Source: a bacterium (GTDB lineage Bacteria > UBP6 > UBA1177 > JAKLFG01). From it: a stretch of 64,000 bases of DNA. Shown in pieces: positions 28,717 to 44,045 of the stretch. Position numbers and translations under genes: made by a program. The stretch covers positions 360,603-424,602 of the forward strand of contig JAKLIW010000001.1 in the NCBI GenBank assembly GCA_022709425.1. Direction: 5' to 3'. Positions within the stretch are counted from its first letter, which is position 1, and every line of letters starts with the position of its first letter. The notes under the pieces are model-generated. The model did no database searches, was not told where the DNA came from, and saw only the letters and a program-made list of their open reading frames with translations.

Positions 28717-28752
28717 GATGCGCCTCCCGCCCCCCTTCTCTATGGCCGGTTG

Positions 28753-28780
28753 ATTATAACAAAAGAAAAACTACTTGCAA
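28753..28780 (-). promoter_or_regulatory. Promoter of the GAF-domain gene
   Basis: Minus strand: TTGCAA (28780-28775), a 16-bp spacer, TATAAT (28758-28753), 37 bases before the start codon. Confidence 0.65.
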
Positions 28781-28825
28781 TCTTATGTGCGCTCATGGTC
28801 TACAATTTCTCGCCTGCTCCGGCAA

Positions 28826-29449: not shown

Positions 29450-29480
29450 GAAAACTCCATCTTGTGGTGTTAGGTGTTCG

Positions 29481-30923
29481 TTACAAACAACGGCCGACGC
29501 AGAGTCCGGATGCCGACCCGTGATAGAAGAACGCGGCTCCTTCGTCGTACTGGCCGTTATCGTACAAACTCGCTCCCACCAACACGTCGCCGTAGCCGTC
29601 GCCGTTCACATCGCCTGCCGACGCGACCGACCGGCCGAAAAAGGCATCCGCCTGATTCGATTCGAACTTTTGGTTTGCCGATATACTCAGGCCGTCCGCT
29701 GAGCCGCGATAGAAAAAGGCGGCCCCTTCGTCGGTCTTGTTGCCGTCGTACGAACGGGCGCCGACGATCACATCGTCGTAGCCGTCGCCGTTCACATCGC
29801 CCGCGGAGGCGACCGCGGCGCCGAAATTCGCCCCCGCCTGATCCGGTTCGATCATCCGGTCGTATACCGCGCCGCAACCGTTAACCGAGCCGTGATAGAT
29901 AAAAACGGCCCCCTCATCGGTCTGGCCGTGATCGTACAGGTAGGCACCGACGACCACATCGTCGAAGCCGTCGCCGTTCACATCGCCCGCCGACGCGACC
30001 GAATAGCCGAAATAGGCGCCCGCCTGATCCGGTTCGATCGTGCGGTCCGCAGTCATGCCGATGCCGTTCGCCGATCCGTGATAGATGAACGCGGCCCCCT
30101 CGTCGGTCTGTCCGTTGTCGTACAGGAACGCGCCGACGACCACATCGCCGTAGCCGTCGCCGTTCACATCGCCCGCCGACGCGACCGAATAGCCGAACCA
30201 CGCGCCCGCCTGATCCATTTCCAATCTCCGGGCATACTGCGCACCGACGCCGGTGGCCGATCCGTGATAGATGAATGCGGCCCCCTCGTCGGTCTGACCG
30301 TTGTCGTACAAGAATGCGCCGACGATCACATCGCCGTACCCGTCGCCGTTCACATCGCCCGCCGCCGCGACCGAGATGCCGAACGAGGCGTTCGCCTGAT
30401 CCACTTCGAGACGCCGAGCGTAGGCAGGAGCGATACCGGTCGCCGAACCGTGATAGATATAAACCACCCCTTCATCGGTCTGGCCGTTGTCGTACCGGTA
30501 TGCGCTGACGATCACATCGCCGTAGCCGTCGCCGTTCACATCGCCCGCAGAGGCGACCGACCAACCGAGGCGCGCGTCCTTTTGATTCGATTCGAGCCGT
30601 ATAGCATAGGCGGTCTTGATACCGGTCGCCGAACCGTGATAGATATAAACCACCCCTTCGTCGGTCTGACCGTTGTCGTAGAAATTGGCGCCGACCGCGA
30701 CATCGCCGTAGCCGTCGCCGTTCACATCGCCCACCGAGGTGACCGCAATACCGAAGTTCGCCGCCTTCTGGTTCACTTCGAGGATATTGCTTATCGTTAC
30801 GGGAGTCTTCGCGGTCTTTCCGGCAAGGGACACGGCGACCTCTTCCTCCGGCGCTTGGTTCTCGCAGGAGAGGGCGATCAGCGCTATCGCCAAACACGAG
30901 ACACACAGAAGATTTCTTTTCAT
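29481..30923 (-). CDS. FG-GAP repeat lipoprotein (integrin-alpha-like propeller)
   Basis: A 480-residue lipoprotein (signal ending in LIALSC). After a short linker come seven nearly identical repeats of about 60 residues, each with the calcium-binding DVNGDGYGDVxVGA motif and the phrase YDNGQTDEGxxxIYHGSA. Seven FG-GAP units build a complete integrin-alpha-type beta-propeller at the cell surface, usually used for adhesion or ligand binding. The start at 30923 has GGAGG; the frame to 30953 is longer but gives no better signal. It is first in a unit with the response regulator downstream and sits behind a GacA/NarL-type box. Repeats are very similar at DNA level, so unit number may vary by recombination. 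Confidence 0.9.
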   Translation of the reverse strand: MKRNLLCVSCLAIALIALSCENQAPEEEVAVSLAGKTAKTPVTISNILEVNQKAANFGIAVTSVGDVNGDGYGDVAVGANFYDNGQTDEGVVYIYHGSATGIKTAYAIRLESNQKDARLGWSVASAGDVNGDGYGDVIVSAYRYDNGQTDEGVVYIYHGSATGIAPAYARRLEVDQANASFGISVAAAGDVNGDGYGDVIVGAFLYDNGQTDEGAAFIYHGSATGVGAQYARRLEMDQAGAWFGYSVASAGDVNGDGYGDVVVGAFLYDNGQTDEGAAFIYHGSANGIGMTADRTIEPDQAGAYFGYSVASAGDVNGDGFDDVVVGAYLYDHGQTDEGAVFIYHGSVNGCGAVYDRMIEPDQAGANFGAAVASAGDVNGDGYDDVIVGARSYDGNKTDEGAAFFYRGSADGLSISANQKFESNQADAFFGRSVASAGDVNGDGYGDVLVGASLYDNGQYDEGAAFFYHGSASGLCVGRCL

Positions 30924-30968
30924 GACGACCTCCATTTTTCGTTCCCGAACCACTCGATCATCGATGAC

Positions 30969-31035
30969 AGGATATCTTTTTTAAGGTCGTTTTTCTGTAG
31001 GACGCGGCTTTTTTTCGTGTAGGATTGTGCCTACG
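30969..31035 (-). promoter_or_regulatory. Activator-type promoter with GacA/NarL-like box upstream of the FG-GAP lipoprotein gene
   Basis: The palindrome TGTAGGATTGTGCCTACG (31018-31035) and the half-site TGTAGGAC (30996-31003) are 22 bases apart. A -10 element TATCCT (30974-30969, minus strand) lies 55 bases from the palindrome centre. Spacing is identical to that at 17651-17717, although the intervening bases differ. Confidence 0.65.
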
Positions 31036-31050
31036 GGGAACTTGGAAGGA

Positions 31051-31674
31051 TCAGAAGATATCGTGTTCCAACGCGTAGCGGACCATGTCGGCATCGTTGG
31101 TGACGCGCAATTTATGCCAAATGCGCGTGTGGAAGGTGCTCACCGTTTTCGGACTGACATTCAGTTCGGCCGCGATATCCTTGATCGATCGCCCCGCCAC
31201 CAACATCCGCAGAACGGTGTATTCCCGGTCGGAGAGCTCCTCCTGCGGCGTCTTTTCGGTGCGTCCGACATCTCCGGCGAGTCGTTCCGCCGTCGCGGCG
31301 CTGATGTACCGACCGTGCGCCATCACCTTTCTGATGGCCGACACCAGTTCCTCGGGGGCGCATTGTTTGTTGAGATAACCGCGGGCCCCCGCCTTGAGCA
31401 CGCGAACCGCCATCTGTTCTTCCGGCGCACTGCTGAGCACCAGCACCGGCAATTCGGGGTAAAGGCGGCGCACTTCGTCCAGAACGGTCAATCCTCCCGA
31501 CCCGGGCATGAAAATATCGAGTATCAACAGTTCCCACTTCTGCAGAGCCAGTTCCGTCAAAGCTTCGGCGGCGGATCCGGCCTCTCCGATGACGGCGGCG
31601 GAAATTTCATCGGCGATGAGACGGGCGAGACCTTTTCGAATGACGGCATGGTCATCGACGAGCAGTATCCTCAT
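31051..31674 (-). CDS. NarL/LuxR-family response regulator paired with a NarX-type kinase
   Basis: A 207-residue regulator with a receiver (ILLVDDHAVIRKGL; phosphoacceptor in LILDIFMPGSGG; GYLNKQ) and a LuxR-type helix-turn-helix (LSDREYTVLRMLVAGRS, DIAAELNVSPKTVSTFHTRI). It is collinear and highly similar to the regulator at 28826-29449, including the stretch LPVLVLSSAPEEQMA. The start codon overlaps the kinase stop (ATGA), so kinase and regulator are a cognate pair. The gene ends only 16 bases from the GacA/NarL-type box in front of the FG-GAP gene, which it may bind. Confidence 0.94.
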   Translation of the reverse strand: MRILLVDDHAVIRKGLARLIADEISAAVIGEAGSAAEALTELALQKWELLILDIFMPGSGGLTVLDEVRRLYPELPVLVLSSAPEEQMAVRVLKAGARGYLNKQCAPEELVSAIRKVMAHGRYISAATAERLAGDVGRTEKTPQEELSDREYTVLRMLVAGRSIKDIAAELNVSPKTVSTFHTRIWHKLRVTNDADMVRYALEHDIF

Positions 31675-32819
31675 GACGGCGCCTCCCCGGTCGGAGCCTT
31701 TATTTTCTGAGGCAGACGGACCTCTACCGTGGTTCCACGGCCTTTCTCGCTTCTGATGTCGGCGACCCCGCCCAGTAGCGCCGCCCGCTCTCTCATGCCG
31801 ATCAGCCCGATCGACAGCGGATCTTTGAGCGTCGCCGAAGAAAATCCTTTGCCGTTATCCGTTACGGTCAGCGACAAACCGTCGCCATCCGAGCGCAGGC
31901 AAACTTCGACCAGCGTGGCGGCGGCATGACGTCGGATGTTGTTCAAACTTTCCTGCAGGATGCGGAATAGCGCGGTCGCCCGGTCCCGGTCGACGGTCGG
32001 GTCTTTTTGTGGGATCTTCGCGCGACAAACGATGCCGTATCGCTCTTGAAATTCGCGGCACTGCCACTCCACCGCGGCGCATAATCCGAGACTGTCGAGC
32101 ACCGCCGGACGCAGTTCGGTGGCGATCTTCTGCACACAATTTATCGCGCCGTCGGTCAGGGCGATCATTTCGGCGACTCGTTCTTTGAGAACAACGGCGG
32201 GGGGAGCGCTCTTGGCGAGCTGACCATTCAACCAGACAAGGTCCAATTTCAATCGAATCAGATCTTGCGCGACTTGATCATGTATCTCGCGGGCGATCCG
32301 GGTCCGTTCCTGTTCCGGCACCACAAGCAGACGATCGGCCAACGCCCGCAATTCTTCCCGGGAAGCGAGAAGCGCTTCGTCATGTTCCCGCAGAAGTTGC
32401 CGGGTCTCTTCCAGTTTCCGTTCGACATCGAGTTGTTCCAGCACCCGTTCGACCGCTATGGTCAGCACATTGAGGAATTGTGTATCCTTGACGATGTAAT
32501 CGCGCGCGCCGCGCTTCATCATATCGACCGCTATTCGCTCGTCGCCCCGGCCGGTGGCCACGATGAACGGCGGCAACGCAATGTTCGTCCGTTCGGCGGC
32601 GGCGATGAAATCGGCGCCCGACATGTCGGGGAGCGAGTAATCAAGAAGGATCAGCCGCGGCCGCCGTTCCCGGGACATCGCCAACGCCTCTTCGCCCGAA
32701 AAGGCTTCCGCCGTATCCCATCCGTGTCCGCGAAGCGTAATGGCGATAAGTTCCGACAAGCCCGGGTCGTCTTCCACTATAAGTATGGTCGTTTTTTCAT
32801 TTCCGGCGTTTTTCTTCAT
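31671..32819 (-). CDS. Cytoplasmic receiver - NarX-type histidine kinase
   Basis: A 382-residue protein. An N-terminal receiver (about 9-125; ILIVEDDPGLSELI, LILLDYSLPDMSGADF, RDYIVKD) is followed by a coiled coil and a HisKA_3 dimerization domain with the phosphorylated His in RIAREIHDQVAQDLI. The HATPase has LRPAVLDSLGL, DNGKGF and GLIGMRERAALLGG. It has no membrane segment, so its input must come through the receiver. The start is set at 32819, where homology to the paralogous receiver at 14550-17621 begins; the open frame upstream overlaps the peptide gene at 32884-33033 in another frame and is not coding. It is coupled to the regulator downstream. Confidence 0.92.
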   Translation of the reverse strand: MKKNAGNEKTTILIVEDDPGLSELIAITLRGHGWDTAEAFSGEEALAMSRERRPRLILLDYSLPDMSGADFIAAAERTNIALPPFIVATGRGDERIAVDMMKRGARDYIVKDTQFLNVLTIAVERVLEQLDVERKLEETRQLLREHDEALLASREELRALADRLLVVPEQERTRIAREIHDQVAQDLIRLKLDLVWLNGQLAKSAPPAVVLKERVAEMIALTDGAINCVQKIATELRPAVLDSLGLCAAVEWQCREFQERYGIVCRAKIPQKDPTVDRDRATALFRILQESLNNIRRHAAATLVEVCLRSDGDGLSLTVTDNGKGFSSATLKDPLSIGLIGMRERAALLGGVADIRSEKGRGTTVEVRLPQKIKAPTGEAPS

Positions 32820-32883: not shown

Positions 32884-33033
32884 TCAGCAGGGCTGTCCTT
32901 CGCTTTGCCCGGGGTTATGGCAGATGGGCTCGCACTTTTTTCGGTTCTGGAAGATGCATGCAAAAAAAAGCTCCTTTTCCAGCAAGCGCTCTTCAATTAT
33001 GGCCGGTTTCTCGTAGCCGCGACAATTCATCAT
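32884..33033 (-). CDS. Small Cys-rich peptide, candidate RiPP precursor 2
   Basis: A 49-codon frame (or 48 from the second ATG at 33030) under a strong promoter. Residues 7-26 match residues 2-21 of the peptide at 35505-35633 at 13 of 20 positions, in the pattern KPxIxEERxxEKxLxFAC. The remaining 23 residues hold Cys at 34, 38 and 49 besides Cys26, and a Ser-Glu-Gly at 44-46. A conserved charged leader followed by a divergent Cys-containing tail is typical of RiPP precursors. It lies 250 bases downstream of the HprK-related kinase gene and 64 bases upstream of the kinase gene at 32819. The ribosome-binding site is weak (TGAGACC). The 32820-33283 interval otherwise holds only the promoter and AT-rich sequence. 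Confidence 0.78.
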   Translation of the reverse strand: MMNCRGYEKPAIIEERLLEKELFFACIFQNRKKCEPICHNPGQSEGQPC

Positions 33034-33074
33034 GGTCTCAACAAATATCTTTTCACAACAAACAAAACAACGCC

Positions 33075-33103
33075 AGTATATACTCGCAGGGGAACTTTGT
33101 CAA
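33075..33103 (-). promoter_or_regulatory. Strong promoter of the second peptide gene
   Basis: Minus strand: perfect TTGACA (33103-33098), a 17-bp spacer, TATACT (33080-33075). This leaves a leader of about 35 bases before the peptide ATG at 33033. It is the best consensus match in the window. Further upstream, 33104-33283 is AT-rich and I see no gene in it. Confidence 0.82.
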
Positions 33104-33283
33104 TAGAAAGAAATTCATAACACACTGAAAATGCTTTGGATATAAACATACTCAAAGGTCCTTAATAGGAAAAAGGCTGTGATTATGAGGAGTAATGAGG
33201 TTGCTTAAAAAAGACAAAACTTGTAAGCCGACGCCTATCAATAATAAGTGGGTCGGGGCCTACTAACGGTTCTTTCGGTGTGT

Positions 33284-34039
33284 TTAGCGGTATTCGCTTT
33301 CGAGGAGCGTCGTTATCCGTTCGGGCGGATCGGTCAGGTTGTGGAAGAAGGGCCGTACCGGATAGTTATCGCAGAGATCGTTCACCATGCGATGATATGC
33401 GCCAAAGTATTCGCGACGGGTGTAGGGTGTGCTCACCTGACCTTCTACGAGATACCGCCAGAGCGCATCTTCGGTGATCACTGCGCCGATGTGAGAATGA
33501 GCGGCGCTTTCTTTCTGGAGCAGGCATATCCTTTTGAGCGGTGCGGTGATATTGCTGATGACCGCCTGTTTGAGTTTCGGGATCGTGTAAAAGGGGGTCG
33601 AGGCGACAAACAGCACGCCGTTACGCCGGTAGAGGATGTTGGTCTCGTCGTTGCCGCCGGTCATGAGGCCGCGCATCTTGCGGGCGAGCGTGCTCTTGCC
33701 GGTCCCGGAGGTGGCGAGGAACAGGTGTCCGCCACCGTCGCGATCCACGAGAAAACACGAATGAAGCAGAAGAAACAATTCCTCGCGCTCGAACCCCTCG
33801 TAGGCGAGCACTTTGGGTAGATAGAGATACGGCCGGTGTCGCGATATCTGCCATGCGCCATCAACGCGCTGAAGATTGTTGAGGTCGGCGCGCTCCTGAG
33901 CTTCTATCCGAACGGGCATATCGCCTGTCGTCGTCGTTTCAAACAAGCGGAACGGCGCGGGAAGCACCATTCGGGAGCCATATGAGATATTGAGTAAAAA
34001 ACCCCCTATTGAAAACTGACGATTCTTCAGATTTGGCAA
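33284..34039 (-). CDS. HprK-related kinase (RiPP-type)
   Basis: A 251-residue protein. The C-terminal two thirds resemble the HPr kinase/phosphorylase P-loop domain: Walker A is ATSGTGKSTLARK (residues 109-121), the acidic motif is GGNDETNIL (Asp131), and a VASTPFYTIP segment follows. True HprK has a double Asp and acts with HPr; no PTS gene is present here. HprK-related kinases occur in RiPP clusters, for example those phosphorylating a Ser of lasso peptide precursors. The start is TTG at 34039, fixed by GGAGG four to five bases upstream and overlapping the radical SAM gene by 13 bases. The peptide substrates nearby are the inferred target. Confidence 0.82.
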   Translation of the reverse strand: MPNLKNRQFSIGGFLLNISYGSRMVLPAPFRLFETTTTGDMPVRIEAQERADLNNLQRVDGAWQISRHRPYLYLPKVLAYEGFEREELFLLLHSCFLVDRDGGGHLFLATSGTGKSTLARKMRGLMTGGNDETNILYRRNGVLFVASTPFYTIPKLKQAVISNITAPLKRICLLQKESAAHSHIGAVITEDALWRYLVEGQVSTPYTRREYFGAYHRMVNDLCDNYPVRPFFHNLTDPPERITTLLESEYR

Positions 34040-35040
34040 GGATCCTCCGCGGCGGTACCGGTTTTTTGAGCCCCGAGGGTACTCATCTTCCGTTTAAGTT
34101 CCGCGATCCGTTTGCGTACCGCTGAACAGCCGCAGAGAGAATCACCATCCAACAGGGCTTCGGCGGGGCAAGGGTTACAGTAAGCGAACAGGTCGCAGTC
34201 GTTGCATTTCCGATTACGGATGATGAGTGGCCGTTCCGCCGCCGCCTTTCGCACCAGTGCGGCAAAGTCGTCGGTCAGGATGTTGCCGAGCGGCACGGTG
34301 CATTTGCCGCAGGCGTAGATGTCGCCTGCACAGTTTATGCGGAAGGTCGAAGGATCGCCGTAGTGGCAGAGGAACGAAGCCTCCTTCGGCGCGTAAAAGT
34401 TCATCTCGTCGCCTTCAACACTGAACTGGAACCGGATCGCCGCTTCGAGTTCCTCGTCGGTCAGTTTCACCGTTTCGACCTCTGGCCGATGATCGAACGA
34501 ACTGAACAGGCCGTAGTCGATGACCAGTTGCAGGTCGCGCTCCTTGGCAAAGGCGGTCAGCCGCGCGAGATCGGGGAGGGGGCGCAGAAGCGGCGCGGCG
34601 AGTACGATCTTGATGCCCGCCTCACGCAGATGGTCAATTCCCGCCATGATGCGGTCGTAGGCGCCGGAGACACCGGCGCAGCGGTCATGTTCGTTACGAT
34701 CGGCCGAATAGAGAGAAAGATGGACCGTGCCGACATGGAGCGCCTTCAGCCGCGCGACGTTTTCGGCGGTGAGATGGAGTCCGTTGGTCTTGAGATTGAC
34801 GAAGAACCGGCGCTTGCGGGCCGCTTCGATGATCTTGAACAGGTCGGGATTGGTGAACGGCTCATAGCCGCTGAAGGTGACATCGAGATATTCGTTATCG
34901 GCAAGGATGTCGAGCGTCCGCTCCATCTCGGCGAGAGTCATGAGCCGGTGGCCGCATTCCCGCGGCTGGTAGCAGTGCAGGCACCGCGCATCGCACCGGT
35001 CCGCGATCTCGAAAAGGATGCCGGGGCGTTTGATGGTCAT
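34027..35040 (-). CDS. Radical SAM/SPASM peptide-modifying enzyme
   Basis: A 337-residue enzyme. The radical SAM cluster site CxxxCxxC is at residues 16, 20 and 23 (DRCDARCLHCYQPRECG), with the barrel continuing (DVTFSGYEPF, FFVNLKTNGL, VHLSLYSADRNEHD). The C-terminal SPASM/twitch region carries more cysteines (NCAGDIYACGKC, then CNDCDLFAYCNPCPAE and CGC) for auxiliary iron-sulfur clusters. SPASM enzymes with a PqqD partner install thioether, C-C or other cross-links on peptides. Its ATG overlaps the S24/S26 gene stop (ATGA). It probably modifies the small peptides at 35505-35633 and 32884-33033. Confidence 0.92.
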   Translation of the reverse strand: MTIKRPGILFEIADRCDARCLHCYQPRECGHRLMTLAEMERTLDILADNEYLDVTFSGYEPFTNPDLFKIIEAARKRRFFVNLKTNGLHLTAENVARLKALHVGTVHLSLYSADRNEHDRCAGVSGAYDRIMAGIDHLREAGIKIVLAAPLLRPLPDLARLTAFAKERDLQLVIDYGLFSSFDHRPEVETVKLTDEELEAAIRFQFSVEGDEMNFYAPKEASFLCHYGDPSTFRINCAGDIYACGKCTVPLGNILTDDFAALVRKAAAERPLIIRNRKCNDCDLFAYCNPCPAEALLDGDSLCGCSAVRKRIAELKRKMSTLGAQKTGTAAEDPCQI

Positions 35041-35495
35041 AGGTGTTCCATGCCCCGTTTGCGGCCGGACAGTTTTTTCTTCAACTCCGAGAACAACAGA
35101 CGCAACGGACGCGGCGTGTGGTGACGAATACGGTTCCGCAAAAGGTAGTACCAGAATGCCCCGCGTGACCGTTTCCCCTCGACCACCCCAACGATGTCAA
35201 AGAGCGATATCGGCGGATCGCAGTAGGGATTGTTGTCGCCTTTGGTCCGCGCCACGAACCCCTTTTTCCACACCAGCCGGTGTGCGACGAACACCTCGCC
35301 CGAACGAAACACCACCACATCGCCGGGACGCAGATGTTCACGGTCTGCCGGTGCGATGTGAATGAGTTCTCCGGGTTTGATAGAAGGAAGCATGGAGTTC
35401 TGTGAACCGAACAGCACCACCCCGGGACCACCGCCGGTGGAGAAGGTCGTTATGAGTTGGTCGAAGGGGATGTCAGACATAATGGGCAGGGGCAC
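35037..35495 (-). CDS. S24/S26-family peptidase (signal-peptidase-like, Ser/His type)
   Basis: A 152-residue protein. From a GTG start, the catalytic Ser is residue 34 in GSQNSMLPSIKPGE and the second catalytic residue is His72 in VFVAHRLV. A TKGDNN motif follows, as in the SipW/eukaryotic-type signal peptidases that use His instead of Lys. No convincing N-terminal membrane helix is present; only a weak hydrophobic patch (FWYYLLRN) lies near the C-terminus. Such small S24/S26 proteins recur in PqqD-containing RiPP clusters and may cleave the leader. The ATG at 35480 is an alternative start; neither has a good ribosome-binding site. The gene begins 9 bases after peptide 1. Confidence 0.85.
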   Translation of the reverse strand: MPLPIMSDIPFDQLITTFSTGGGPGVVLFGSQNSMLPSIKPGELIHIAPADREHLRPGDVVVFRSGEVFVAHRLVWKKGFVARTKGDNNPYCDPPISLFDIVGVVEGKRSRGAFWYYLLRNRIRHHTPRPLRLLFSELKKKLSGRKRGMEHL

Positions 35496-35504
35496 TGATT
35501 GCGC

Positions 35505-35633
35505 TCAAAGGCCTTCGCTTGCAGTATTGAGAGTGCCTCCCTCGAGCTCACACCCCTCATCACTCATATAACAGGCGAAAAGGAGTTTTTTCTCAATGAT
35601 TCTTTCTTCGACGATCATGGGCTTGATATACAT
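35505..35633 (-). CDS. Small peptide, candidate RiPP precursor 1
   Basis: A 42-codon frame that starts at ATG 35633 with GGAGG four to five bases upstream. It sits 17 bases after the giant lipoprotein gene and 9 bases before the S24/S26 peptidase gene. The first 21 residues (KPMIVEERIIEKKLLFAC core) are strongly charged and match peptide 2 at 13 of 20 positions. The tail of 21 residues after Cys21 has a second Cys at 28, Thr34 and Thr37, and a Ser-Glu-Gly at 39-41. The Y-x-K-P start resembles leaders of other radical SAM-processed peptides. It has no signal peptide or membrane helix. The position between all the predicted maturation enzymes is the main support; the mature product is unknown. 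Confidence 0.8.
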   Translation of the reverse strand: MYIKPMIVEERIIEKKLLFACYMSDEGCELEGGTLNTASEGL

Positions 35634-35650
35634 GAGGACCTCCACAATAC

Positions 35651-38600
35651 TCAATAATAATGGATGACACAATTACCGGTGTCGGTATTCCGGTAACAGA
35701 GAACGATGCCATACGACAGGATCGTCGTCTGTACATTACCGGAGGCTATCGGAAGAGGCAGATACATGGAGGGATGTTTGGTAAAGAAATTGCCAAGCCC
35801 ACTGTAGAGATATTGCGACTGCACTCCGCTGACAAAGAAATCGGCAAGACCGTCACCATCAAAATCTTCAGTAGCGCCAGAGCTACCCACACCCCAAGCT
35901 CCGGTTTCGGCGCCGACCGTTTCGTCCATAATGCCGCTCCGGGTGATCTGGTTGGTCCCTTCGACCCAACTGGTGGAGAAATCGATCCCGCTTCCATCAT
36001 CTTCGCCGAAGAAGAACTTTATCTTGCCGCTCTCGATGACGGCAAAATCGCTATAAGCATCGCCGTTGAAGCTGCCATAGAATCCGCTACGAAGTTGAGT
36101 AAGACCGGCGAGGGTGGCATCATAGGAAGAAATAGTCGTATCGGCGGGACTGGCAGAACCATAAATCGCCTTTATCTTGGTTTGGTTCGTTGCGGTATTA
36201 TAGTTGCCGCCTACGAACGACCCGAGCGGTATGCCACCATTGTTCTGGTTCTTGATGTTGCCTGCCTTGCGCACGGTGTAACCAAAACGGTCGCCGACGG
36301 CATTGCCGATGTACGATACGCCGGTCTGCGCGGTGTAGTCGCCGCCGCAGGTCTTACCCGCCGCTCCCTTGTCGTCACCGTACAGGACAAAAACGCGTCC
36401 GGCGTTCGAGTTGTAATTCGACTGCGCTACGGCAAGATCATCGCACCCATCGCCATTGAAATCATCGATGCCATCGATATCGTTGATGTTGTCCACAAAA
36501 GTCAACATATCGCCGCGAACCGTATCGACAGAATCGACAACACCATAATAAATATGGATGTTCTTACCGCCCAGATCGCTCACTATCACATCCATATGCT
36601 TGTCGCCGTTCAGGTCGGCTGCGGCAAGGCGGAAGCCGAAAGAGGTCCCGGCATCGACCGGTTTTGTCAGTTCCACCTTTGAGGGAGGGGTCACCTTTTT
36701 AGTTTCACTATCGACATTGCTGATGAATACATATGCTTTCTGCTGACCCGAATCGGAAACGGCGAAATCGGTTTCGCCATCTTTGTTGATGTCGCCCATG
36801 TTCTTGATATTCATGGTGTGCGACCCTAGCGAGGCCACTATCAGTTCGTATGCCGTCAACTGTACCGCTCCTTTGTCCACGACATGAGTAGACAGAACGG
36901 GGGCGGTGTTTGTCGCAAGTATCGTCCCATCCTGCGCGTAGATGCCGTCGCTGGCGCGGACCGCGAAGCAGTACTGGTCGCCGTTCCGGTGGATGTCGGC
37001 GGTGATCGTCGTGGCTACGTTAGAGCGTTTCTTCATGTAGAACAGGTAGTTCTGCGCCTCGCCCGCCGCTTTCGGGGTGACGAAGTCGTCGCCGTTGAGC
37101 GACGGATCGGCCACCGAGAAGTTGGCCAGCGGTGTTATCGCCACGCCGGTGTCGAACACGCTCTCGCCGTCGTCGAGCGAGCAGGAGGCGCCATAGGCCT
37201 CATATTTCACCTGATATTCGTACACGCGGTCTTGGAACGCGCCGCCGTAGGTCGAGTTGTTGCCGATGACGGCGCTCCACTCGACGAATGCCTCGCCGCG
37301 GGCCGGGTCGGTCGTTACGGCCGGGGTGATTCCTTCGGGCCGTTCGAGGTTCACATGGACCCAGATCGTCTTGGTGAAGGTGTTGCCCGAGGGCTGTTCG
37401 GTTATCGTCATGAGCATCTCGATGTCGGTCTGGCCGCCCACGACGCTGTCCTCGAAGGTCAGATCGTCGAACTCGGCGACCATGTCGGCGCCGACTTTTT
37501 CGATGTTGACCGTGGTGTTCCCGCCGATCGCGTCGACCGGGTCGACCGCCGTCAGGACGACCGTACCGTGGTTCGGGTAGCCGACGATATCCTCGATACC
37601 GTCGATGGTGAAGATGAGGCGACGGGCCGAAGCGCCGTCGAGTTCGAGGATCGTCGTGGTGTCATGGTCGATATCATCGTTCCAGCCGTAGCCGATCTCC
37701 CAGATGCCGGCGTGGACATAGGGCTCCGGATTGACATCGGTCACCGGGTCGAGCGTCGGATCGGTGTTGTCGGCACGGACATAGTAGGTGTCGGTGGCGA
37801 TGGTGGCGCCGTTGTTGACCGTCAGTTCGATGGTGTTTTCGAGGCCGCCGGCGTTCAACGAAACGAACGCGAAGTCTGCGCGACCATCCAAAACATTGGA
37901 GCAGATATCGGCGCCGCCGTTGACGCTGATGCAGGCGTTGTTGGTGCCGTTCGGCGAATCGGTCTCGACATAGAGATTGTAGGTCGGCCCACCGTCGTTG
38001 CTGTTGAGCCAGGTCGGTACGGTCTGCGTTCCGTTGATCACCTTGTCGTTGGCCGTCAGGTGAAGCGTCGAACAGGCTACATCGGTCACCACCTCGACAT
38101 CGATTTGCTGGTCGACCGGCAGAAGGGCGGTATCGTAGACATTCAAATGGTCGTCGGTCACCTTGACCGTTAGACGCCAGAAGCCGTCGCCAAGCCGCAG
38201 GAGCGGGGCGACCGTCGGGAATATCTGGTCCGCGCCGTCGAGGGTGGCGGTGAAACCGTTCCACGACTTGCGGTTCCGCGCGGTGTCCTCGACGCCACCG
38301 AGGGCGTCTATCGGTATCGCGAGGATATCGATGGTCGAGGCGGTCCCGGTCGGCGTCTGGAGTTTGGTGAGGTCGAGATGCATCGTGAACTGGATGCCCG
38401 ATTCGCCGGGATCCTCGTCATAGTCGGGATCGATGGAGATATCGAGCACCGTGCCGTCGGTCGGATAGGCGATAACGGCGTTGGGGGTCTTCGCGTCGAC
38501 CTCGTAGGTCAGCGCGGCTACACGGACGTTGCCGCGGGCATCCGAAACGGTGATCTCGAACTCATGCTGATTGTAGGCGAGCGCCGGCAGGTCGATGGTG

Positions 38601-41600
38601 ACGGTGGTGCCGACGATGGTCATCTCTCCCAGGCCGTAGGTGTGGGTCGACTGTTCGACATCGGCATAGTCGTAGATCGTATGTTTGACCACCGGGGTCG
38701 CGTTGTTCCAATCGCCGGTGATCTTGAATTTCAGTTGCTGGCCGGTCAGTTCGTCGGCGACCACCGTGCCGTCGCGCGCCGTGAGCCAGAGCTGATGGCC
38801 CGAGGTGGCGCCGGTCGGCCCTTGGAACAGCACGCTCGGCGGCGTGGTGTCGACGGTGATGTTCTTCGACGACTCGTCGGAGGTGTTGCCGCCGCAGTCG
38901 ACGACCGTCGCCCCGAAGGAGTTGGGGGTGAGCAGCTCCGGTATCGTGATGCTGGTGAAGGTGGCGGTCCGGTCGCCCGCGACCGTCGCGGTGTAGATGT
39001 TGCCGGTGGTCTTGTTACGGAGCGTCACGGTCCGACCGATGTCGATATCGTCCTGTATCGTGATGACGATGGTCGCCTGCATCCCGTTCGCCGGGGTGGC
39101 GTCAAGGTCTTCGGCGGCGACAAGGAAATTATCGCTGTTCGCATCGTTCACGACGACAAAGGAGGATATGACCGGCTTGTCGCGGTCGAAGGTGAAAGAA
39201 CGCAGGCCTTCCGCAAGGATTGTCGGCGCTGCGATCCGGTTGTCGGTGTAGCGATCAACGGAGTCGACACCGTCGTTGACCTTGGCGTAGAGTTTGTAGG
39301 TGCCGCATTTGTCGGGCAGGTCGAGCGGTATCGAGAGATCTTCCTGAGCGTTGCACAGCGATCCGGCGGTCGTTCCGCTGGCCACGGCAAGCCCGGTGTC
39401 AGCGTCAATGATCTCAACCGTTTCGCCCGCTTCGAGGTTCTTGGTGCGGTAGACGAAACTCGGCACCGCCGAACCGGCCTTGTAACTGGTACCGTTTGGC
39501 GGCAGGGACCACTGGAAGGTCGGCGTGGTGGTGTTGAGCGAGAAGGAGGTGTTCTGGGTATCGCTGTTGTTTGCGTCGTCGGTCGCGGTGACGGTGAGGG
39601 TGTAGGTGCCTTCACCATTGGCAAGGGTATAGCCGTAGGAGCCGCCGCAGGCGCTCGGTGTACCGTTACCGGCGGGGGTGTCGAACCGGCAGGTGGTGGT
39701 GGTTGCGCCGGTCACGGTGAAGGTGATGGTGCCGGTCGTCCGGCGGGTGCAGGCATTGACCGGATCTATGAGCACGGTGGGCGGCGTATTATCGACATCG
39801 AATGTATCCGACGGCCCGGCCGCGAGAGCTGTGTTACCGGCGTTGTCGCTGGCGGTGCCAGCCGCGATGCTGATGCCGAGCGTACCGTTGCCGGTAAGAT
39901 TGGATATCGTTACGGTGCGGGTCGTTGTGCCGGAACCGGTCACCGTGACGGTGCCTGAAGCGCCGTCGGTCGTGTTGAGCGTTATGTGGCCCGTCGCCAG
40001 CGTCACGCTGTCGGCGCCGGTATAAGTGACGGTGTAGAGGACCGAATCGCCGGTTTTCGCCTCGGTCGCCGAGGGGGCGCCGATCACAAGGGTCGGCTCG
40101 GTAGTGTCTATCGTGATGGCGAAACTGCCGCTGTCGGACCAGTTGCCGAGAGCGTCGGCTGCCTGCACATAAAGCGTGTAGGTACCGGCGGTGAGCGTGG
40201 TGGCGGTGAATGAATTTGCGACGGTCGTCGTCCAGTCCGATTCATCGTAGCTGTAGCGGAAGTTGACCGTATCGGCCGGTGTATCCCACGACCAGAGGGG
40301 TGTGGTATCATTGGTCGGTGTGGTTCCGTTCACCATCGGTGCGGCCGGCGCCTCGGTATCTATCACTATCTCGAAAGAGCCGCTGTCGGACCAGTTGCCG
40401 AGCGCGTCGCGCCCCTGGACATAGAGCGTATAGGAACCATCGATGAGGGGGCTGGGGGTGAATGAATTTGCGACGATCGTCGTCCACGAAGATTCATCGT
40501 AACTATAACGGAATTCAACCGTGTCGGTCGGGGTGTTCCATGACCATGTCGGCGTGGGGTTGTTCGTGGGAGAGATTCCGTCCACCGTCGGTGCGTCGGG
40601 GCCGGTGATGTCTATCTCGACGGTGAAGTAACCGCTACCCGACCACGTGCCGACGCCGTTGCGGGCCTGCACGAAGAGTGTATGGGACCCTTCGGTGAGC
40701 GCCGACCCCGGGGTGAAGGAAAGGTCGGTCGTCGTCGCCCAACCGTTGCCGTCGGTGAAACTGTAGCGGTATTCGACCGCGTCGGTCACCGCATTCCATG
40801 ACCATTCGGGGGTCGTATCGTTGGTCGGCGACGTACCGGTCACGACCGGTGCATCGGGCACCGACAGGTCTATCACGACCTCTTTCGAGCCTGAGAGCGA
40901 CCAGTTGCCGGCGGCATCCTGCGCCTGCACATAGAGGGTGTAGGTTCCGGCGGTAAGCGTTGCGGCGGTGAAGGAGGTATTCGTCGTTTCGGTCCAGTTC
41001 AAACCGTCGGTGTAGCTGTAACGATAATTGACCGCGTCGGTGACCGGTATCCAGGTCCAGTTCGGCGTGGGATCGTTGGTCGGCGTGGTGGCGAGCACCG
41101 TCGGGGCGTCGGGCGCCGACGTGTCTATCGTGATGGTGAACCAGCCGCTATCGGACCAGTTCCCTGCCGCGTCACGGGCCTGCACGAAAAGGGTATGCTC
41201 CCCTTCGATAAGTGCATCATCGGGGGAGAAGGTCACTGCCGAAGTGGTGGTCCAGTCGATATCGTCGCCGGTATAATTGAAGCGATACTCGACCGCACCG
41301 GCCGGTGTGTTCCATGACCAGGCGGGGGTCGTATCGTTGGTCGGCGTGGTGCCGGTGACCGTCGGGGCGGCGGGGGCGGTGGTGTCGATCACGATGGCGA
41401 AAGAGCCGCTGGTTGACCAGTTGCCCGCCGCATCACGACCCTGCACATAGAGGGTGTGGGTGCCTACCGCGAGCGCTGTGGCGGTGAAGTCGGTATCGGT
41501 CGTTACGGTCCAAGGGGAGCCGTTAGTGAAGCTGTGACGGAATTCAACGGTGCCGGCCGGTGTGTTCCATGACCACGTGGGGGTCGTATCGTTGGTCGGT

Positions 41601-43690
41601 GTTATGCCGTCGACCGTCGGGGCAGCGGGCGCCGTGGTGTCGATCACGATGGCGAAAGAGCCGCTCGTTGACCAGTTGCCCGCTGCATCGCGGCCTTGGA
41701 CATAGAGCGTGTGGGTGCCTACTGCGAGCGCTGTGGCAGTGAAGTCGGTATCGGTCGTCACGGTCCACCCGGAGCCGTCGGTGAAGCTGTAACGGAATTC
41801 AACGGTGTCGGCCGGGGTGTTCCATGACCACGTGGGGGTCGTGTCGTTGGTCGGCGTGGTACCGGAAACCGTCGGGGCGGCGGGAGGCAGTGAGTCGACC
41901 TGCACCGTCAGGGCGGCGGTGCGCAGAACGCCTAGATGCATGACCGACGCCGTGATCGAATCTTCGCCGTCGGGGAGGGTAGTGGTATCGAATATCGTCA
42001 GACCGCCGGTTCCGATCGTTTCCACTATCGGTGTTTCATCGTTGATCGTAAGCGATACTTCGGTCGTCGCCGATTCGATGTCGGTCGTCCGGACGATGAC
42101 GGTGCACTGGACGCCGGCGGCGAGTTGGTCGCCGTCATCGGCCGTGTTCAGCTGCATGTTCATGGCCGGGGTTCGGGCGCAGATGGTTTGGAAGGCTATC
42201 GCCGGATCGTTCACATAGACCTTAAGGGGGACCTCGACGACCGTTTCGTTGCCGATAGCGTCGCGGGCGGTGACGGCAAGGGTCAGCGCCTCGTTGGTCT
42301 CGGTGAAGGATATCTCCGCCACGGTGAAGGGACCATCGCCGGTCGTATCGCCGAGCAGCGTCGTGCCGTTGCGCACCTCGACCGCGACCGAGTCGGAGAG
42401 TTCGTCGATCGCCTTGCCGGTAACGGCGATCTGTATTCCCTCGGTCGTCGTATTGATGTCGTCGACCGGCGTGAGGGTGGCATTCTCGACCGGAGCGGTG
42501 ATAGAGAGCTCCGGCGGGGTGATATCGATGAACAGGCCGGTGACGGTCATCGAACCGGTCGCCGAACTGTCATCATCCTTCATGACCACCGTGAGGGTAT
42601 GTGTGTCGGCCTGACTGATGCTTTCGGGCAGTGTGATCGACTGTTCAACGGAGGCGGCGCCGAGCGTCAGCGTCTCGTCGGGCTCATCGGTCCCCGGCGT
42701 GCCGTCGATGTATATCTCGATCGCCGAACCAACCGAACAAAGGTCGGAGACATCGCTGATGATAAGCGTTTTTTGAAGGTTGTTGAGGCCGGTGTTCTCA
42801 TCGTCGGCGATGCCGAACCGGTCGTCGTTCTGGATGTTAAGGGCAAAGCCGCAGGATTGTTCCGATGCGGCGCTGAAAGAGAGGGTGTCCTCATAGGTGC
42901 CCGTTTTCACTTTCATTACGATGTTGGCCGCTATCGGCACCGTTATCTCGGGGAATGTCGCGACGCCGTTCTGTATGTTCGCGGAGCCTACCGGCGTATT
43001 GCTGAGAGCCTCGATGAAGAGGTCGACCTTCTGTCCGTCGGGATAACCGGTGGTCACCGCTTCCATCTTCACTTGGAAAAGATCGGTGTCCTTTTTTAGG
43101 TCGTCGTTGTCGTCGAGATCCGCACCTTCCAGTATCGTGGGAACGGTCCCGGCCTTGTAGTAGCGCATGACGAGCGTTTCGATCTCGTCATAGCTCACCG
43201 TAAGGGTCGCCGTCACCTTGATGGCGGGGCTCAGGGTGATATAGGCGGTCACGGTATGGGTTCCCGCCTCAAACGGGATGCTGAGGAACCGGGCGGTACC
43301 ATTCACGAGGGTCCCGGCGTAATTTTTAACGGTGGGTTGCGCAGAGCCGCTAACTGCGTCGGTATCGGTCTGTTCGGCGGCGCTCTTCACTTCGAGGGTG
43401 AGCGAAGTGCCGTCTTTTATCGCGCCGGCGGTCGTTTGCGCGGCGACGGTGATGTTGATTTGGATGAGATCGTCGCTTTTATCGACATCGTCCGCGGTCG
43501 TTACGATCTGGCCATCGGTGATATCTTGGAAGAGAAGCTTCACCTCGATCTGGTGACACTTCTGATCATCTCCGCAGGCGTATCCCGCCTTGCAGTCGCT
43601 GTCGGCGCTACACTGTTCTTTGGAGGAACAGGCGCCCGCTACAAGGGACAGGAACACAACCCAAATAAGAAGAGCGACGATACGTCTCAT
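35651..43690 (-). CDS. Giant secreted lipoprotein with Ig-like repeats and C-terminal FG-GAP units
   Basis: A 2679-residue protein. The signal ends in LVAGAC (Cys21, likely lipid-anchored). Four cysteines spaced exactly five residues apart follow (27, 33, 39, 45), as in Myxococcota surface proteins. Residues about 50-600 hold varied Ig/cadherin-like domains. Residues about 600-1200 hold seven near-identical units of about 85 residues (PTNDTTPTWSWNT..., LYVQGRDAAGNWSxSGSF). More Ig-like domains run to about 2250, and the last part has five FG-GAP-like calcium sites (DINKDGETDFAV, DFNGDGCDDLAV, DFDGDGLADFFV). It is probably a long surface adhesin or stalk. It lies between the PqqD gene and peptide 1, 17 bases from the peptide, so it may present or anchor the modified peptide; that is inference. 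Confidence 0.9.
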   Translation of the reverse strand: MRRIVALLIWVVFLSLVAGACSSKEQCSADSDCKAGYACGDDQKCHQIEVKLLFQDITDGQIVTTADDVDKSDDLIQINITVAAQTTAGAIKDGTSLTLEVKSAAEQTDTDAVSGSAQPTVKNYAGTLVNGTARFLSIPFEAGTHTVTAYITLSPAIKVTATLTVSYDEIETLVMRYYKAGTVPTILEGADLDDNDDLKKDTDLFQVKMEAVTTGYPDGQKVDLFIEALSNTPVGSANIQNGVATFPEITVPIAANIVMKVKTGTYEDTLSFSAASEQSCGFALNIQNDDRFGIADDENTGLNNLQKTLIISDVSDLCSVGSAIEIYIDGTPGTDEPDETLTLGAASVEQSITLPESISQADTHTLTVVMKDDDSSATGSMTVTGLFIDITPPELSITAPVENATLTPVDDINTTTEGIQIAVTGKAIDELSDSVAVEVRNGTTLLGDTTGDGPFTVAEISFTETNEALTLAVTARDAIGNETVVEVPLKVYVNDPAIAFQTICARTPAMNMQLNTADDGDQLAAGVQCTVIVRTTDIESATTEVSLTINDETPIVETIGTGGLTIFDTTTLPDGEDSITASVMHLGVLRTAALTVQVDSLPPAAPTVSGTTPTNDTTPTWSWNTPADTVEFRYSFTDGSGWTVTTDTDFTATALAVGTHTLYVQGRDAAGNWSTSGSFAIVIDTTAPAAPTVDGITPTNDTTPTWSWNTPAGTVEFRHSFTNGSPWTVTTDTDFTATALAVGTHTLYVQGRDAAGNWSTSGSFAIVIDTTAPAAPTVTGTTPTNDTTPAWSWNTPAGAVEYRFNYTGDDIDWTTTSAVTFSPDDALIEGEHTLFVQARDAAGNWSDSGWFTITIDTSAPDAPTVLATTPTNDPTPNWTWIPVTDAVNYRYSYTDGLNWTETTNTSFTAATLTAGTYTLYVQAQDAAGNWSLSGSKEVVIDLSVPDAPVVTGTSPTNDTTPEWSWNAVTDAVEYRYSFTDGNGWATTTDLSFTPGSALTEGSHTLFVQARNGVGTWSGSGYFTVEIDITGPDAPTVDGISPTNNPTPTWSWNTPTDTVEFRYSYDESSWTTIVANSFTPSPLIDGSYTLYVQGRDALGNWSDSGSFEIVIDTEAPAAPMVNGTTPTNDTTPLWSWDTPADTVNFRYSYDESDWTTTVANSFTATTLTAGTYTLYVQAADALGNWSDSGSFAITIDTTEPTLVIGAPSATEAKTGDSVLYTVTYTGADSVTLATGHITLNTTDGASGTVTVTGSGTTTRTVTISNLTGNGTLGISIAAGTASDNAGNTALAAGPSDTFDVDNTPPTVLIDPVNACTRRTTGTITFTVTGATTTTCRFDTPAGNGTPSACGGSYGYTLANGEGTYTLTVTATDDANNSDTQNTSFSLNTTTPTFQWSLPPNGTSYKAGSAVPSFVYRTKNLEAGETVEIIDADTGLAVASGTTAGSLCNAQEDLSIPLDLPDKCGTYKLYAKVNDGVDSVDRYTDNRIAAPTILAEGLRSFTFDRDKPVISSFVVVNDANSDNFLVAAEDLDATPANGMQATIVITIQDDIDIGRTVTLRNKTTGNIYTATVAGDRTATFTSITIPELLTPNSFGATVVDCGGNTSDESSKNITVDTTPPSVLFQGPTGATSGHQLWLTARDGTVVADELTGQQLKFKITGDWNNATPVVKHTIYDYADVEQSTHTYGLGEMTIVGTTVTIDLPALAYNQHEFEITVSDARGNVRVAALTYEVDAKTPNAVIAYPTDGTVLDISIDPDYDEDPGESGIQFTMHLDLTKLQTPTGTASTIDILAIPIDALGGVEDTARNRKSWNGFTATLDGADQIFPTVAPLLRLGDGFWRLTVKVTDDHLNVYDTALLPVDQQIDVEVVTDVACSTLHLTANDKVINGTQTVPTWLNSNDGGPTYNLYVETDSPNGTNNACISVNGGADICSNVLDGRADFAFVSLNAGGLENTIELTVNNGATIATDTYYVRADNTDPTLDPVTDVNPEPYVHAGIWEIGYGWNDDIDHDTTTILELDGASARRLIFTIDGIEDIVGYPNHGTVVLTAVDPVDAIGGNTTVNIEKVGADMVAEFDDLTFEDSVVGGQTDIEMLMTITEQPSGNTFTKTIWVHVNLERPEGITPAVTTDPARGEAFVEWSAVIGNNSTYGGAFQDRVYEYQVKYEAYGASCSLDDGESVFDTGVAITPLANFSVADPSLNGDDFVTPKAAGEAQNYLFYMKKRSNVATTITADIHRNGDQYCFAVRASDGIYAQDGTILATNTAPVLSTHVVDKGAVQLTAYELIVASLGSHTMNIKNMGDINKDGETDFAVSDSGQQKAYVFISNVDSETKKVTPPSKVELTKPVDAGTSFGFRLAAADLNGDKHMDVIVSDLGGKNIHIYYGVVDSVDTVRGDMLTFVDNINDIDGIDDFNGDGCDDLAVAQSNYNSNAGRVFVLYGDDKGAAGKTCGGDYTAQTGVSYIGNAVGDRFGYTVRKAGNIKNQNNGGIPLGSFVGGNYNTATNQTKIKAIYGSASPADTTISSYDATLAGLTQLRSGFYGSFNGDAYSDFAVIESGKIKFFFGEDDGSGIDFSTSWVEGTNQITRSGIMDETVGAETGAWGVGSSGATEDFDGDGLADFFVSGVQSQYLYSGLGNFFTKHPSMYLPLPIASGNVQTTILSYGIVLCYRNTDTGNCVIHYY
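40095..41895 (-). repeat. Tandem array of seven coding repeats in the giant lipoprotein gene
   Basis: Seven units of about 255 bp encode Ig-like domains of about 85 residues, each opening with PxAPTVxGxTPTNDTTP. The first two units (about 41390-41895) are almost identical in DNA, which indicates recent duplication. Copy number may vary between strains, and short-read assembly could miscount units here. Confidence 0.85.
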
Positions 43691-43742
43691 ACGATACTCC
43701 CACAGAAGGTTCTTCTAACAAGACCGGGTGCCGATGATAGCA

Positions 43743-44045
43743 CTACCTGTTGGTATTGTCAACAATTTGTTCGACCAGTTGACGGTCGATAAGGTCCCGC
43801 AACATCTCATGAGTATCGCGTTCTAGGGTCGCACGGTCGACGCCGTCGGAACCCCCGAATTTTTCATACAGTCCGTCGACGACCGCGGCGACGTTTCGTT
43901 TCCCGTCGAGCAGTTCCCAGATGATCCCCGCCGTCGCGTTGATCGATATGATCTTTTCGACGAGCGGCGAAACGATGGTCACCGTTCCGTCCTTCATCTT
44001 GCGCCACGCGATCTCATCGCGGATCCGGTAGACATGGTCGTTCAT
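43743..44045 (-). CDS. PqqD-family peptide chaperone / RiPP recognition element
   Basis: A 100-residue protein of the PqqD fold (winged helix): WRKMKDGTVTIVSP, then the family hallmark INATAGIIWELLDGKRNVAAVVDGL, then DTHEMLRDLIDRQLVE. PqqD proteins bind the leader of a peptide substrate and deliver it to a radical SAM enzyme. It is the first gene of the minus-strand cluster that ends with the HprK-related kinase. The ATG at 44045 follows AGGAG; the frame to 44075 runs into the promoter. Partner assignment to the radical SAM enzyme at 34027-35040 is by gene context. Confidence 0.9.
   Translation of the reverse strand: MNDHVYRIRDEIAWRKMKDGTVTIVSPLVEKIISINATAGIIWELLDGKRNVAAVVDGLYEKFGGSDGVDRATLERDTHEMLRDLIDRQLVEQIVDNTNR

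What the first reader, a model, noticed from the sequence alone, without database searches (positions are those of the whole stretch)
32884..44045. A RiPP-like locus with two unannotated homologous precursor peptides
Seen: on one strand lie PqqD (43743-44045), a giant lipoprotein, a 42-residue peptide (35505-35633), an S24/S26 peptidase, a radical SAM/SPASM enzyme and an HprK-related kinase with short gaps or overlaps, followed by a separate 49-residue peptide (32884-33033). The peptides match at 13 of 20 leader residues (KPxIxEERxxEKxLxFAC) and then diverge. Known: PqqD binds leaders for SPASM enzymes, and HprK-like kinases and S24/S26 peptidases occur in RiPP clusters. Inference: a two-precursor pathway, possibly a new family. 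I know of no described system with this gene set plus a 2.7-kb-residue-scale surface lipoprotein.
Basis: partly seen in the sequence, partly recalled or inferred. Interest (0 to 1): 0.93.

Follow-up and report, generated by a model that had tools for sequence, protein, structure and literature searches.

The report
RiPP locus tied to giant lipoprotein
Two related small peptides, enzymes likely to modify and cut them, and a giant predicted surface lipoprotein are encoded together in this uncultured bacterium, and many relatives in its phylum keep the peptide, its likely binding protein and the lipoprotein side by side, so they likely form an uncharacterised peptide-maturation system related to the recently described polyphosphorylated peptides of Bacillota.

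Summary
Both peptides recur in the same operon in three close relatives, and their leader family (Y-x-K-P) recurs across the phylum. Taking the giant lipoprotein by its own C-terminal profile, 15 of 15 are followed within 1-22 nt by a leader peptide, and 13 of 13 with sequence upstream are preceded by PqqD. Kinase, SipW-like protease and radical SAM genes vary; an NTP transferase, mostly unlinked, tracks the cassette (16 of 17 versus 1 of 11 genomes). In one genus the PqqD-lipoprotein-peptide-kinase set is a ~6-kb unit, missing from the matching site in three relatives.

In that genus the leader is frozen (near-saturated synonymous change, no amino-acid change) and tails of its type are hypervariable with two cysteines or none: precursor behaviour. 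The nearest described system is LPP (Popov 2026: RRE, HprK-like kinase, SipW-like leader peptidase); PqqD here keeps the Asp that holds the leader Tyr in LppB. A different leader, a radical SAM enzyme, the lipoprotein and no linked exporter set it apart, so I do not file it as LPP. The lipoprotein's role is inferred; nothing has been tested at the bench.

The parts
43743..44045 (-). PqqD-type RiPP recognition element (RRE)
   Evidence: PF05402 47.1 bits; best solved relatives are the RREs TbiB1 (5v1u) and LppB (9x8z); Asp equivalent to LppB D70 in 15 of 15 cassette PqqDs
35651..43690 (-). giant lipoprotein (2679 aa), Ig-like repeats and a C-terminal FG-GAP region predicted as a beta-propeller, integrin-like
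   Evidence: C-terminal profile 486-775 bits in 15 genomes, next best unrelated proteins about 100 bits or less; fold search best hit integrin alpha5, other propellers follow
35505..35633 (-). precursor peptide A (42 aa)
   Evidence: conserved in G001, G002, G004 at the same place
35037..35495 (-). SipW/archaeal-type S24/S26 leader peptidase; start likely the ATG at 35480 as in the relatives
   Evidence: TIGR02228 49.2 bits, cut-off 51.85; S34, H72, D87 and D93 invariant in 4 of 4; matches SEC11A at E 1e-4
34027..35040 (-). radical SAM enzyme with a Cys-rich C-terminal region
   Evidence: Radical_SAM 83.3 bits; CxxxCxxC and C-terminal Cys conserved in 4 of 4; orthologues at 83, 74 and 74% identity; no PF13186 match
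33284..34039 (-). HprK-like kinase
   Evidence: P-loop GKST, preceding His and the D of the ND motif invariant in 14 of 14 sequences; predicted fold matches PEPCK/HprK
32884..33033 (-). precursor peptide B (49 aa)
   Evidence: leader conserved and tail variable in G001, G002, G004

Best explanation
The locus is predicted to be a RiPP-type maturation operon in which the PqqD protein would bind the Y-x-K-P leader of two likely precursor peptides, the HprK-like kinase and the radical SAM enzyme would modify their tails, the SipW-like protease would cut the leader off, and the mature peptide likely acts together with the giant predicted surface lipoprotein encoded in the same gene row. Shown here: the gene set and its conservation; in genus g4 a frozen leader and, for its leader type, hypervariable tails; conserved active-site motifs in kinase and protease; the leader-binding Asp in PqqD; tight PqqD-lipoprotein-peptide linkage; co-occurrence with a mostly unlinked NTP transferase. 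Inferred from the LPP precedent: PqqD presents the precursor; the kinase phosphorylates a Ser or Thr of the tail (S-[D/E] in the window's type, one of the first three tail residues in the g4 type), perhaps followed by the NTP transferase; the protease cuts near the conserved F/Y-A. Untested: that the radical SAM enzyme acts on the tail cysteines, that the product is exported, and that it binds or is joined to the lipoprotein.
For: Linkage, taking the lipoprotein by its own C-terminal profile (15 genomes): a leader peptide follows in 15 of 15, with a possible start codon 1-22 nt behind the lipoprotein stop, and PqqD precedes in 13 of 13 where the upstream side is assembled (in G002 on a second contig). 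Precursor behaviour: in five g4 species the 24-codon leader is identical in protein while synonymous sites are near saturation (97 differences over 125 sites, summed over 10 pairs); 34 peptides with that leader type have 34 different tails. Kinase site: S or T in the first three tail residues in 34 of 34 of these (shuffled mean 11, max 23 in 5000); S-[DE] in 10 of 10 tails of the window's type (shuffled mean 2.1, max 8). Cysteines: 2 (28 tails) or 0 (6), never odd, in the g4 type. RRE: LppB-D70 equivalent is Asp in 15 of 15. Enzymes track the cassette (17 of 28 genomes): HprK-like 13 of 17 versus 0 of 11, S26-like 11 of 17 versus 0 of 11, NTP_transf_5 16 of 17 versus 1 of 11, and within g4 5 of 5 versus 0 of 10. 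Empty site in G008, G010 and G013 where G020 has PqqD-lipoprotein-peptide-kinase. Mechanistic precedent: LPP.
Against: No product, binding or modification has been measured. In the window neither peptide has S or T in the first three tail residues, and in 27 peptides outside the g4 type only 12 do. G025 and G027 have no HprK-like hit. G003, of the window's own family, has one peptide directly before an HprK-like gene and no S26 or close radical SAM hit (65% complete). G014 has a second kinase-radical SAM-peptide set without a lipoprotein beside it (L026), and G006 has a giant lipoprotein without a PqqD hit. Six of 21 PqqD hits lie in other settings. Fourteen peptides hold a single cysteine. 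G007 lacks the clean empty-site arrangement, and in G011 the flanking gene lies about 50 kb from the cassette. No exporter gene is in the window's cassette. The kinase is not called by Pfam; its model has mean pLDDT 72.8 and TM-scores to PEPCK/HprK of 0.45 or less on its own length.
Confidence: 0.7

Rival explanations
1. It is a RiPP pathway, but the giant lipoprotein is an operon passenger with an unrelated surface role; the peptide is released and works elsewhere.
For: No physical link between peptide and lipoprotein is shown; G014 has a second peptide-kinase-radical SAM set with no lipoprotein beside it; G006 has a lipoprotein without a PqqD hit.
Against: The lipoprotein lies between PqqD and peptide in 13 of 13 loci with both sides assembled, in three families (f1, f2, f4), while kinase, protease and radical SAM genes vary; within g4 the 5 genomes with the cassette have it and the best matches in the 10 without score 55 bits or less, and the set is missing as a whole at the empty site.
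Confidence: 0.22
2. The peptides are not precursors of a released product: the constant part is an adaptor or chaperone subunit that binds PqqD, and the tails are under weak constraint.
For: The g4 leader is conserved along its whole length, beyond the Y-x-x-P part; six g4-type tails have no cysteine.
Against: Tails are not drifting freely: cysteines come in twos or not at all in 34 of 34 g4-type tails, and S/T lies in the first three residues in 34 of 34. S26-like protease and NTP transferase track the cassette.
Confidence: 0.12
3. It is a true member of the LPP family that spread outside Bacillota.
For: Same three functions (RRE, HprK-like kinase, SipW-like peptidase), the Y-x-x-P leader motif, an NTP transferase in the genome, and in G026 kinase, protease and NTP transferase beside the peptide.
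Against: The leader lacks the rest of the published LPP motif (YxxPxVLxHQxIxFETxxS), no exporter gene is in the window's cassette, and a radical SAM enzyme and lipoprotein are added. The paper states LPPs are restricted to Bacillota.
Confidence: 0.1
4. It is a lasso peptide cluster with unrecognised cyclase and protease.
For: Y-x-x-P leader, PqqD-like RRE, HprK-like kinase and NTP transferase are shared with paeninodin-type lasso clusters.
Against: PF13471 (lasso B2 protease) has no match in the window's genome; its matches in 22 of 28 genomes are frames of 320-531 aa, none on a cassette contig. No cyclase is among the window's cassette genes; PF00733 was not searched genome-wide.
Confidence: 0.02

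Closest known systems
Linear polyphosphorylated peptides (LPP), Popov et al. 2026, PMC13381572 (read: abstract, Introduction, Results sections 6, 7, 8, 9 and 11, Discussion; not section 10, Methods or supplements)
   Same: Discrete PqqD-like RRE binding a Y-x-x-P leader, HprK-like kinase, archaeal/SipW-type peptidase with Ser-His-Asp, NTP transferase (here mostly unlinked), conserved leader with variable tail, one to three precursors
   Different: Other leader sequence after Y-x-x-P; radical SAM enzyme in the window and some relatives; giant lipoprotein between RRE and precursor; no MsbA-like exporter in the window's cassette; an uncultured phylum instead of Bacillota
Paeninodin-type lasso peptides (as described in PMC13381572; passages of PMC5067487)
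   Same: RRE, HprK-like kinase, Y/W-x-x-P leader
   Different: No B2 protease at the locus and none found in the window's genome; SipW-like protease instead; cyclase not searched genome-wide
SynChlorMet cassette (NCBIfam TIGR04248-04251; model names, gene content recalled)
   Same: PqqD-like, HprK-like and radical SAM proteins; matches to ScmC, ScmD, ScmE, ScmF
   Different: All matches far below the curated cut-offs; no SipW-like peptidase, peptide family or giant lipoprotein that I recall in that cassette
PQQ and GeoRSP pathways
   Same: PqqD plus radical SAM enzyme
   Different: Scores below cut-offs for both; kinase, protease and lipoprotein are extra

Membership tests
LPP | discrete RRE of the PqqD fold | tested here: met
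   PF05402 47.1 bits; LppB (9x8z) second among solved relatives at E 0.0045
LPP | HprK-like kinase | tested here: met
   motifs and predicted fold, though no Pfam call; found in 13 of 17 cassette genomes
LPP | SpI/SipW-like leader peptidase with Ser-His-Asp | tested here: met
   S34, H72, D87, D93 invariant in 4 of 4; TIGR02228 49.2 bits, just under the cut-off of 51.85
LPP | NTP transferase in the gene cluster | tested here: inconclusive
   In the window's genome on another contig (G000:C75); beside the cassette peptide in G026
LPP | MsbA-like exporter in the gene cluster | tested here: not met
   None among the window's cassette genes; the neighbours are an MFS and a CDF gene. An unlinked exporter was not searched for
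LPP | precursor motif YxxPxVLxHQxIxFETxxS | tested here: not met
   Only Y-x-x-P and following aliphatic residues agree
LPP | Ser3 of the core polyphosphorylated | not testable with these tools
   Needs mass spectrometry; sequence shows S/T near the tail start in the g4 type, not in the window
Lasso peptide | B2 leader peptidase (PF13471) | tested here: not met
   0 matches in the window's genome; matches in 22 of 28 genomes, none on a cassette contig
Lasso peptide | macrolactam cyclase (PF00733) | not tested
   No genome-wide search was run; none among the window's cassette genes
SynChlorMet | ScmC, ScmD, ScmE, ScmF above NCBIfam cut-offs | tested here: not met
   19.7 of 125, 19.9 of 100, 52 of 400 and 49.4 of 400 bits
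PQQ biosynthesis | PqqD and PqqE equivalogs | tested here: not met
   39.1 of 46 and 67.2 of 381.35 bits

The most novel reading that the evidence does not exclude
A new class of RiPP-like system whose product is a hypervariable, disulfide-paired or radical-SAM-bridged phosphopeptide matured for display on, or capture by, the integrin-like propeller of a giant surface lipoprotein: a dedicated peptide tag of the cell surface, gained and lost as one unit, that could serve recognition between cells.
Probability: 0.3. Interest if true: 0.88.

Novelty: new variant of a known kind. Interest (0 to 1): 0.76.

Why it matters
RiPP pathways are mostly read as makers of released peptides. Here the genes that stay together over a phylum are not the modifying enzymes but the recognition protein, the peptide and a giant predicted surface lipoprotein, which points to a cell-surface job. 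It also puts the LPP enzyme logic (RRE, HprK-like kinase, SipW-like protease, NTP transferase) into an uncultured phylum outside Bacillota and adds a radical SAM step, and it gives a defined test set (58 further peptides, loci in 17 genomes, an empty site) for the open question of what phosphorylated RiPPs are for.

Tried and rejected
Homologue search with the two window peptides alone found only themselves; the wider alignment from relatives was needed. NCBIfam and Pfam had no model for the peptides. The first peptide profile gave two weak hits outside the phylum among 290 genomes, G038 and G159 (E up to 0.01); neither reached E 0.001 with the wider profile in 386 genomes, where one outside hit remained, G130 (E 3e-4). 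Its 4.4-kb contig shows a leader-like peptide and, by their first residues, none of the cassette proteins. The paralogous radical SAM gene at G000:C1:155005 has no PqqD, kinase or peptide profile hit beside it. The spermidine-synthase-like gene behind the kinase in four of the five g4 cassette genomes was considered as a pathway member and rejected: it is present in 14 of 15 g4 genomes whether or not the cassette is there. A lasso reading was tested and dropped. The general rule 'Ser/Thr in the first three tail residues' was rejected outside the g4 type (12 of 27). 'PqqD always precedes a giant lipoprotein' was rejected as a general rule: 15 of 21 PqqD hits do, six do not. Rows dropped before counts: P0054, a longer start of P0048; P0001 and P0002 were among the 63 rows but not the 61. 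Literature: 'SynChlorMet' 0 papers; HPr kinase + PqqD + precursor peptide 3 papers; RiPP, HprK, signal peptidase, nucleotidyltransferase, at least 3 of 4, 3 papers, only the LPP paper relevant by its listing; RiPP, precursor peptide, surface lipoprotein, PqqD, at least 3 of 4, 41 papers, none of the 10 listed holds 'surface lipoprotein'. No paper with this gene set was seen in these searches; the library lacks most subscription papers. PMC12710340, PMC7470986 and PMC5067487 were seen as passages only.

Full report
What is in the window. On the minus strand, from 44045 down to 32884, lie a PqqD gene, a 2679-residue lipoprotein, peptide A, an S24/S26 peptidase, a radical SAM enzyme, an HprK-like kinase and peptide B. 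The two peptides share 13 of 20 residues from Tyr to FAC. The DNA pattern for the leader core occurs nowhere else in the 3.01-Mb assembly. The radical SAM gene has no PF13186 (SPASM) match.

Close relatives. The radical SAM protein has orthologues at 83, 74 and 74% identity in G001, G002 and G004. Contigs of the same lengths in the named collection belong to three uncultured metagenome-assembled bacteria. All three carry peptide A directly behind the lipoprotein, then protease, radical SAM gene, peptide B and kinase. Peptide A is conserved along its length, B mainly in its leader. S34, H72, D87 and D93 of the peptidase are invariant in 4 of 4. G003, the fifth genome of the family (65% complete), shows lipoprotein end, one peptide and an HprK-like gene directly behind it.

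Across the phylum. 28 genomes are held. PqqD (PF05402) gives 21 hits in 16 genomes. Fifteen of the 21, in 15 genomes, are followed directly by a giant lipoprotein gene (cut by a contig end in G002, G015 and G018). The other six are two loci with other genes (G014:C189, G015:C212), two PqqD domains inside ~490-residue radical SAM-like frames (G013:C94, G023:C5) and a second small PqqD in G025 and G026. Independently, the lipoprotein's C-terminal profile finds 15 genomes at 486-775 bits; apart from second pieces of the same proteins in G002 and G016, no other match exceeds about 100 bits. Of these 15, PqqD precedes in 13 of 13 whose upstream side is assembled (G003 and G016 are cut; G002 spans two contigs), and a leader peptide follows in 15 of 15, with a possible start 1-22 nt behind the stop. 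With G015 and G018 (contigs end inside the lipoprotein) this makes 17 cassette genomes in three families. G006, in a fourth family, has a cut giant lipoprotein but no PqqD hit.

Enzymes vary. HprK-like: 13 of 17 cassette genomes, 0 of 11 others. S26-like by profile: 11 of 17 versus 0 of 11; G025 and G027 have an S24-like protein next to the NTP transferase (27.9 and 20.0 bits, cut-off 23.3). NTP_transf_5: 16 of 17 (not G015) versus 1 of 11 (G006). In genus g4, 5 of 15 genomes have the cassette; NTP_transf_5 is in 5 of 5 versus 0 of 10 (Fisher p 3.3e-4) and S26-like in 4 of 5 versus 0 of 10. In those four the S26-like gene overlaps a family-2 glycosyltransferase gene by 4 bases; the S26-like proteins themselves fall below Pfam cut-offs. 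Genomes within a genus are related, so p-values are guides only. In G026 kinase, protease and NTP transferase sit beside the peptide on the other strand.

One unit. In G020 the PqqD, giant lipoprotein, peptide and kinase genes (about 6 kb) lie between a small CSSK-type lipoprotein gene and a spermidine-synthase-like gene. In G008, G013 and G010, without the cassette, those two genes lie 143, 147 and 145 bp apart (the small lipoprotein genes are matched by their first residues). In G007 other frames lie between. In G011 the spermidine-synthase-like gene lies about 50 kb from the cassette. G005 has the cassette beside that gene with a different gene on the other side.

Precursor logic. A search of 5.8 billion proteins with 19 peptides returned 59 proteins at E up to 1, one of them the window's peptide A, the rest unnamed or 'hypothetical protein'. 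All 63 sequences compared contain Y-x-[KR]-P. In five g4 species the 24-codon leader is identical in protein, while 97 synonymous differences fall on 125 synonymous sites summed over 10 pairs; the 10 counted non-synonymous steps come from AGT/TCA serine codons. The 34 peptides with the g4 leader type (chosen by leader pattern, most from metagenomes) have 34 different tails of 13-23 residues, rich in P, D, E, G, C and N, with two cysteines (28) or none (6). Independent binomial odds for never-odd are about 1e-10, but the peptides are related, so this overstates it. S or T lies in the first three tail residues in 34 of 34 (shuffled mean 11, maximum 23). Tails of the window's type carry S-[DE] in 10 of 10 (shuffled mean 2.1, maximum 8). 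Outside the g4 type the first-three rule holds in 12 of 27, and 14 peptides hold a single Cys, all in C-[ST]-T.

Recognition. The best solved relatives of this PqqD are TbiB1 (5v1u, E 5e-5) and LppB (9x8z, E 0.0045); RadA chains follow at E 0.1 and above, as noise. Both are RREs solved in leader complexes according to the LPP paper. LppB D70, which holds the leader Tyr, is Asp in 15 of 15 cassette PqqDs; N33, which fixes the kink at the leader Pro, is Asn in 12 of 15 and Glu in the three f4 genomes.

Kinase and lipoprotein structure. The kinase alignment keeps a His before the P-loop, GKST and the D of an ND motif in 14 of 14; the model (mean pLDDT 72.8, low over the first third) matches PEPCK and HPr kinases with E down to 2e-5 but TM-scores of 0.45 or less on its own length. 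The lipoprotein's C-terminal 599 residues (mean pLDDT 68.7) match an integrin alpha chain best, with other propeller folds close behind; the conserved C-terminus most likely closes a propeller.

Mechanism and its precedent. In LPP the kinase puts phosphates on core Ser3, the SipW-like protease needs the RRE to cut the leader, and the function is unknown. The window's operon has the same three functions plus a radical SAM enzyme, and I infer the same order of events. What LPP is not reported to have is the lipoprotein, and here it is, with PqqD and the peptide, the most constant part. My reading is that the mature peptide works at the surface with the lipoprotein. That step is inference from linkage, not from binding data.

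Against it: G014 has a second kinase-radical SAM-peptide set with no lipoprotein beside it, G006 has a giant lipoprotein with no PqqD hit, G025 and G027 lack an HprK-like hit, the window's peptides do not follow the g4 serine rule, and peptide B's ribosome-binding site looks weak.

Where it is found. A profile of 32 peptides hit 15 of 28 genomes of the phylum and 1 of 358 others; that other contig showed no cassette genes.

Noticed in passing
L090:6833-9508 and L091:3826-6636: In G026 and G025 a second small PqqD sits beside an ATP-grasp protein and a PLP-dependent decarboxylase (Pfam run on the G026 copies) whose own N-terminus reads like a leader (YESPII / YERPVL), as if a leader were fused to an enzyme.
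   Followed up: partly
L115:6071-7254, L116:4768-5951, L117:6150-7363, L118:3627-4813: In four g4 cassette genomes the unlinked S26-like protease gene overlaps a family-2 glycosyltransferase gene by 4 bases, hinting at glycosylation of the peptide.
   Followed up: partly
L026:5771-7436: G014 has a second kinase - radical SAM - leader peptide set (peptide with CTYCPG) on a contig with no giant lipoprotein in the 12 kb held.
   Followed up: partly
L126:4594-10581: G006 encodes a giant lipoprotein of the same N-terminal type behind an unrelated 1011-residue frame, without a PqqD hit in the genome; the contig ends inside it.
   Followed up: partly
window 27844-32819 and 29481-30953: A run of response regulators, a histidine kinase and a GAF protein with an FG-GAP repeat protein lies directly downstream of the cassette; possibly its control or a second surface protein.
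   Followed up: no
L078:8496-9962, L079:6049-7512: PqqD domain inside a ~490-residue radical SAM-like protein in G023 and G013, a separate system.
   Followed up: no
L141:318-527: A leader-like peptide (MKQYRKPEIISEQVLEKVALSC...) in a genome outside the phylum (G130), on a 4.4-kb contig.
   Followed up: partly
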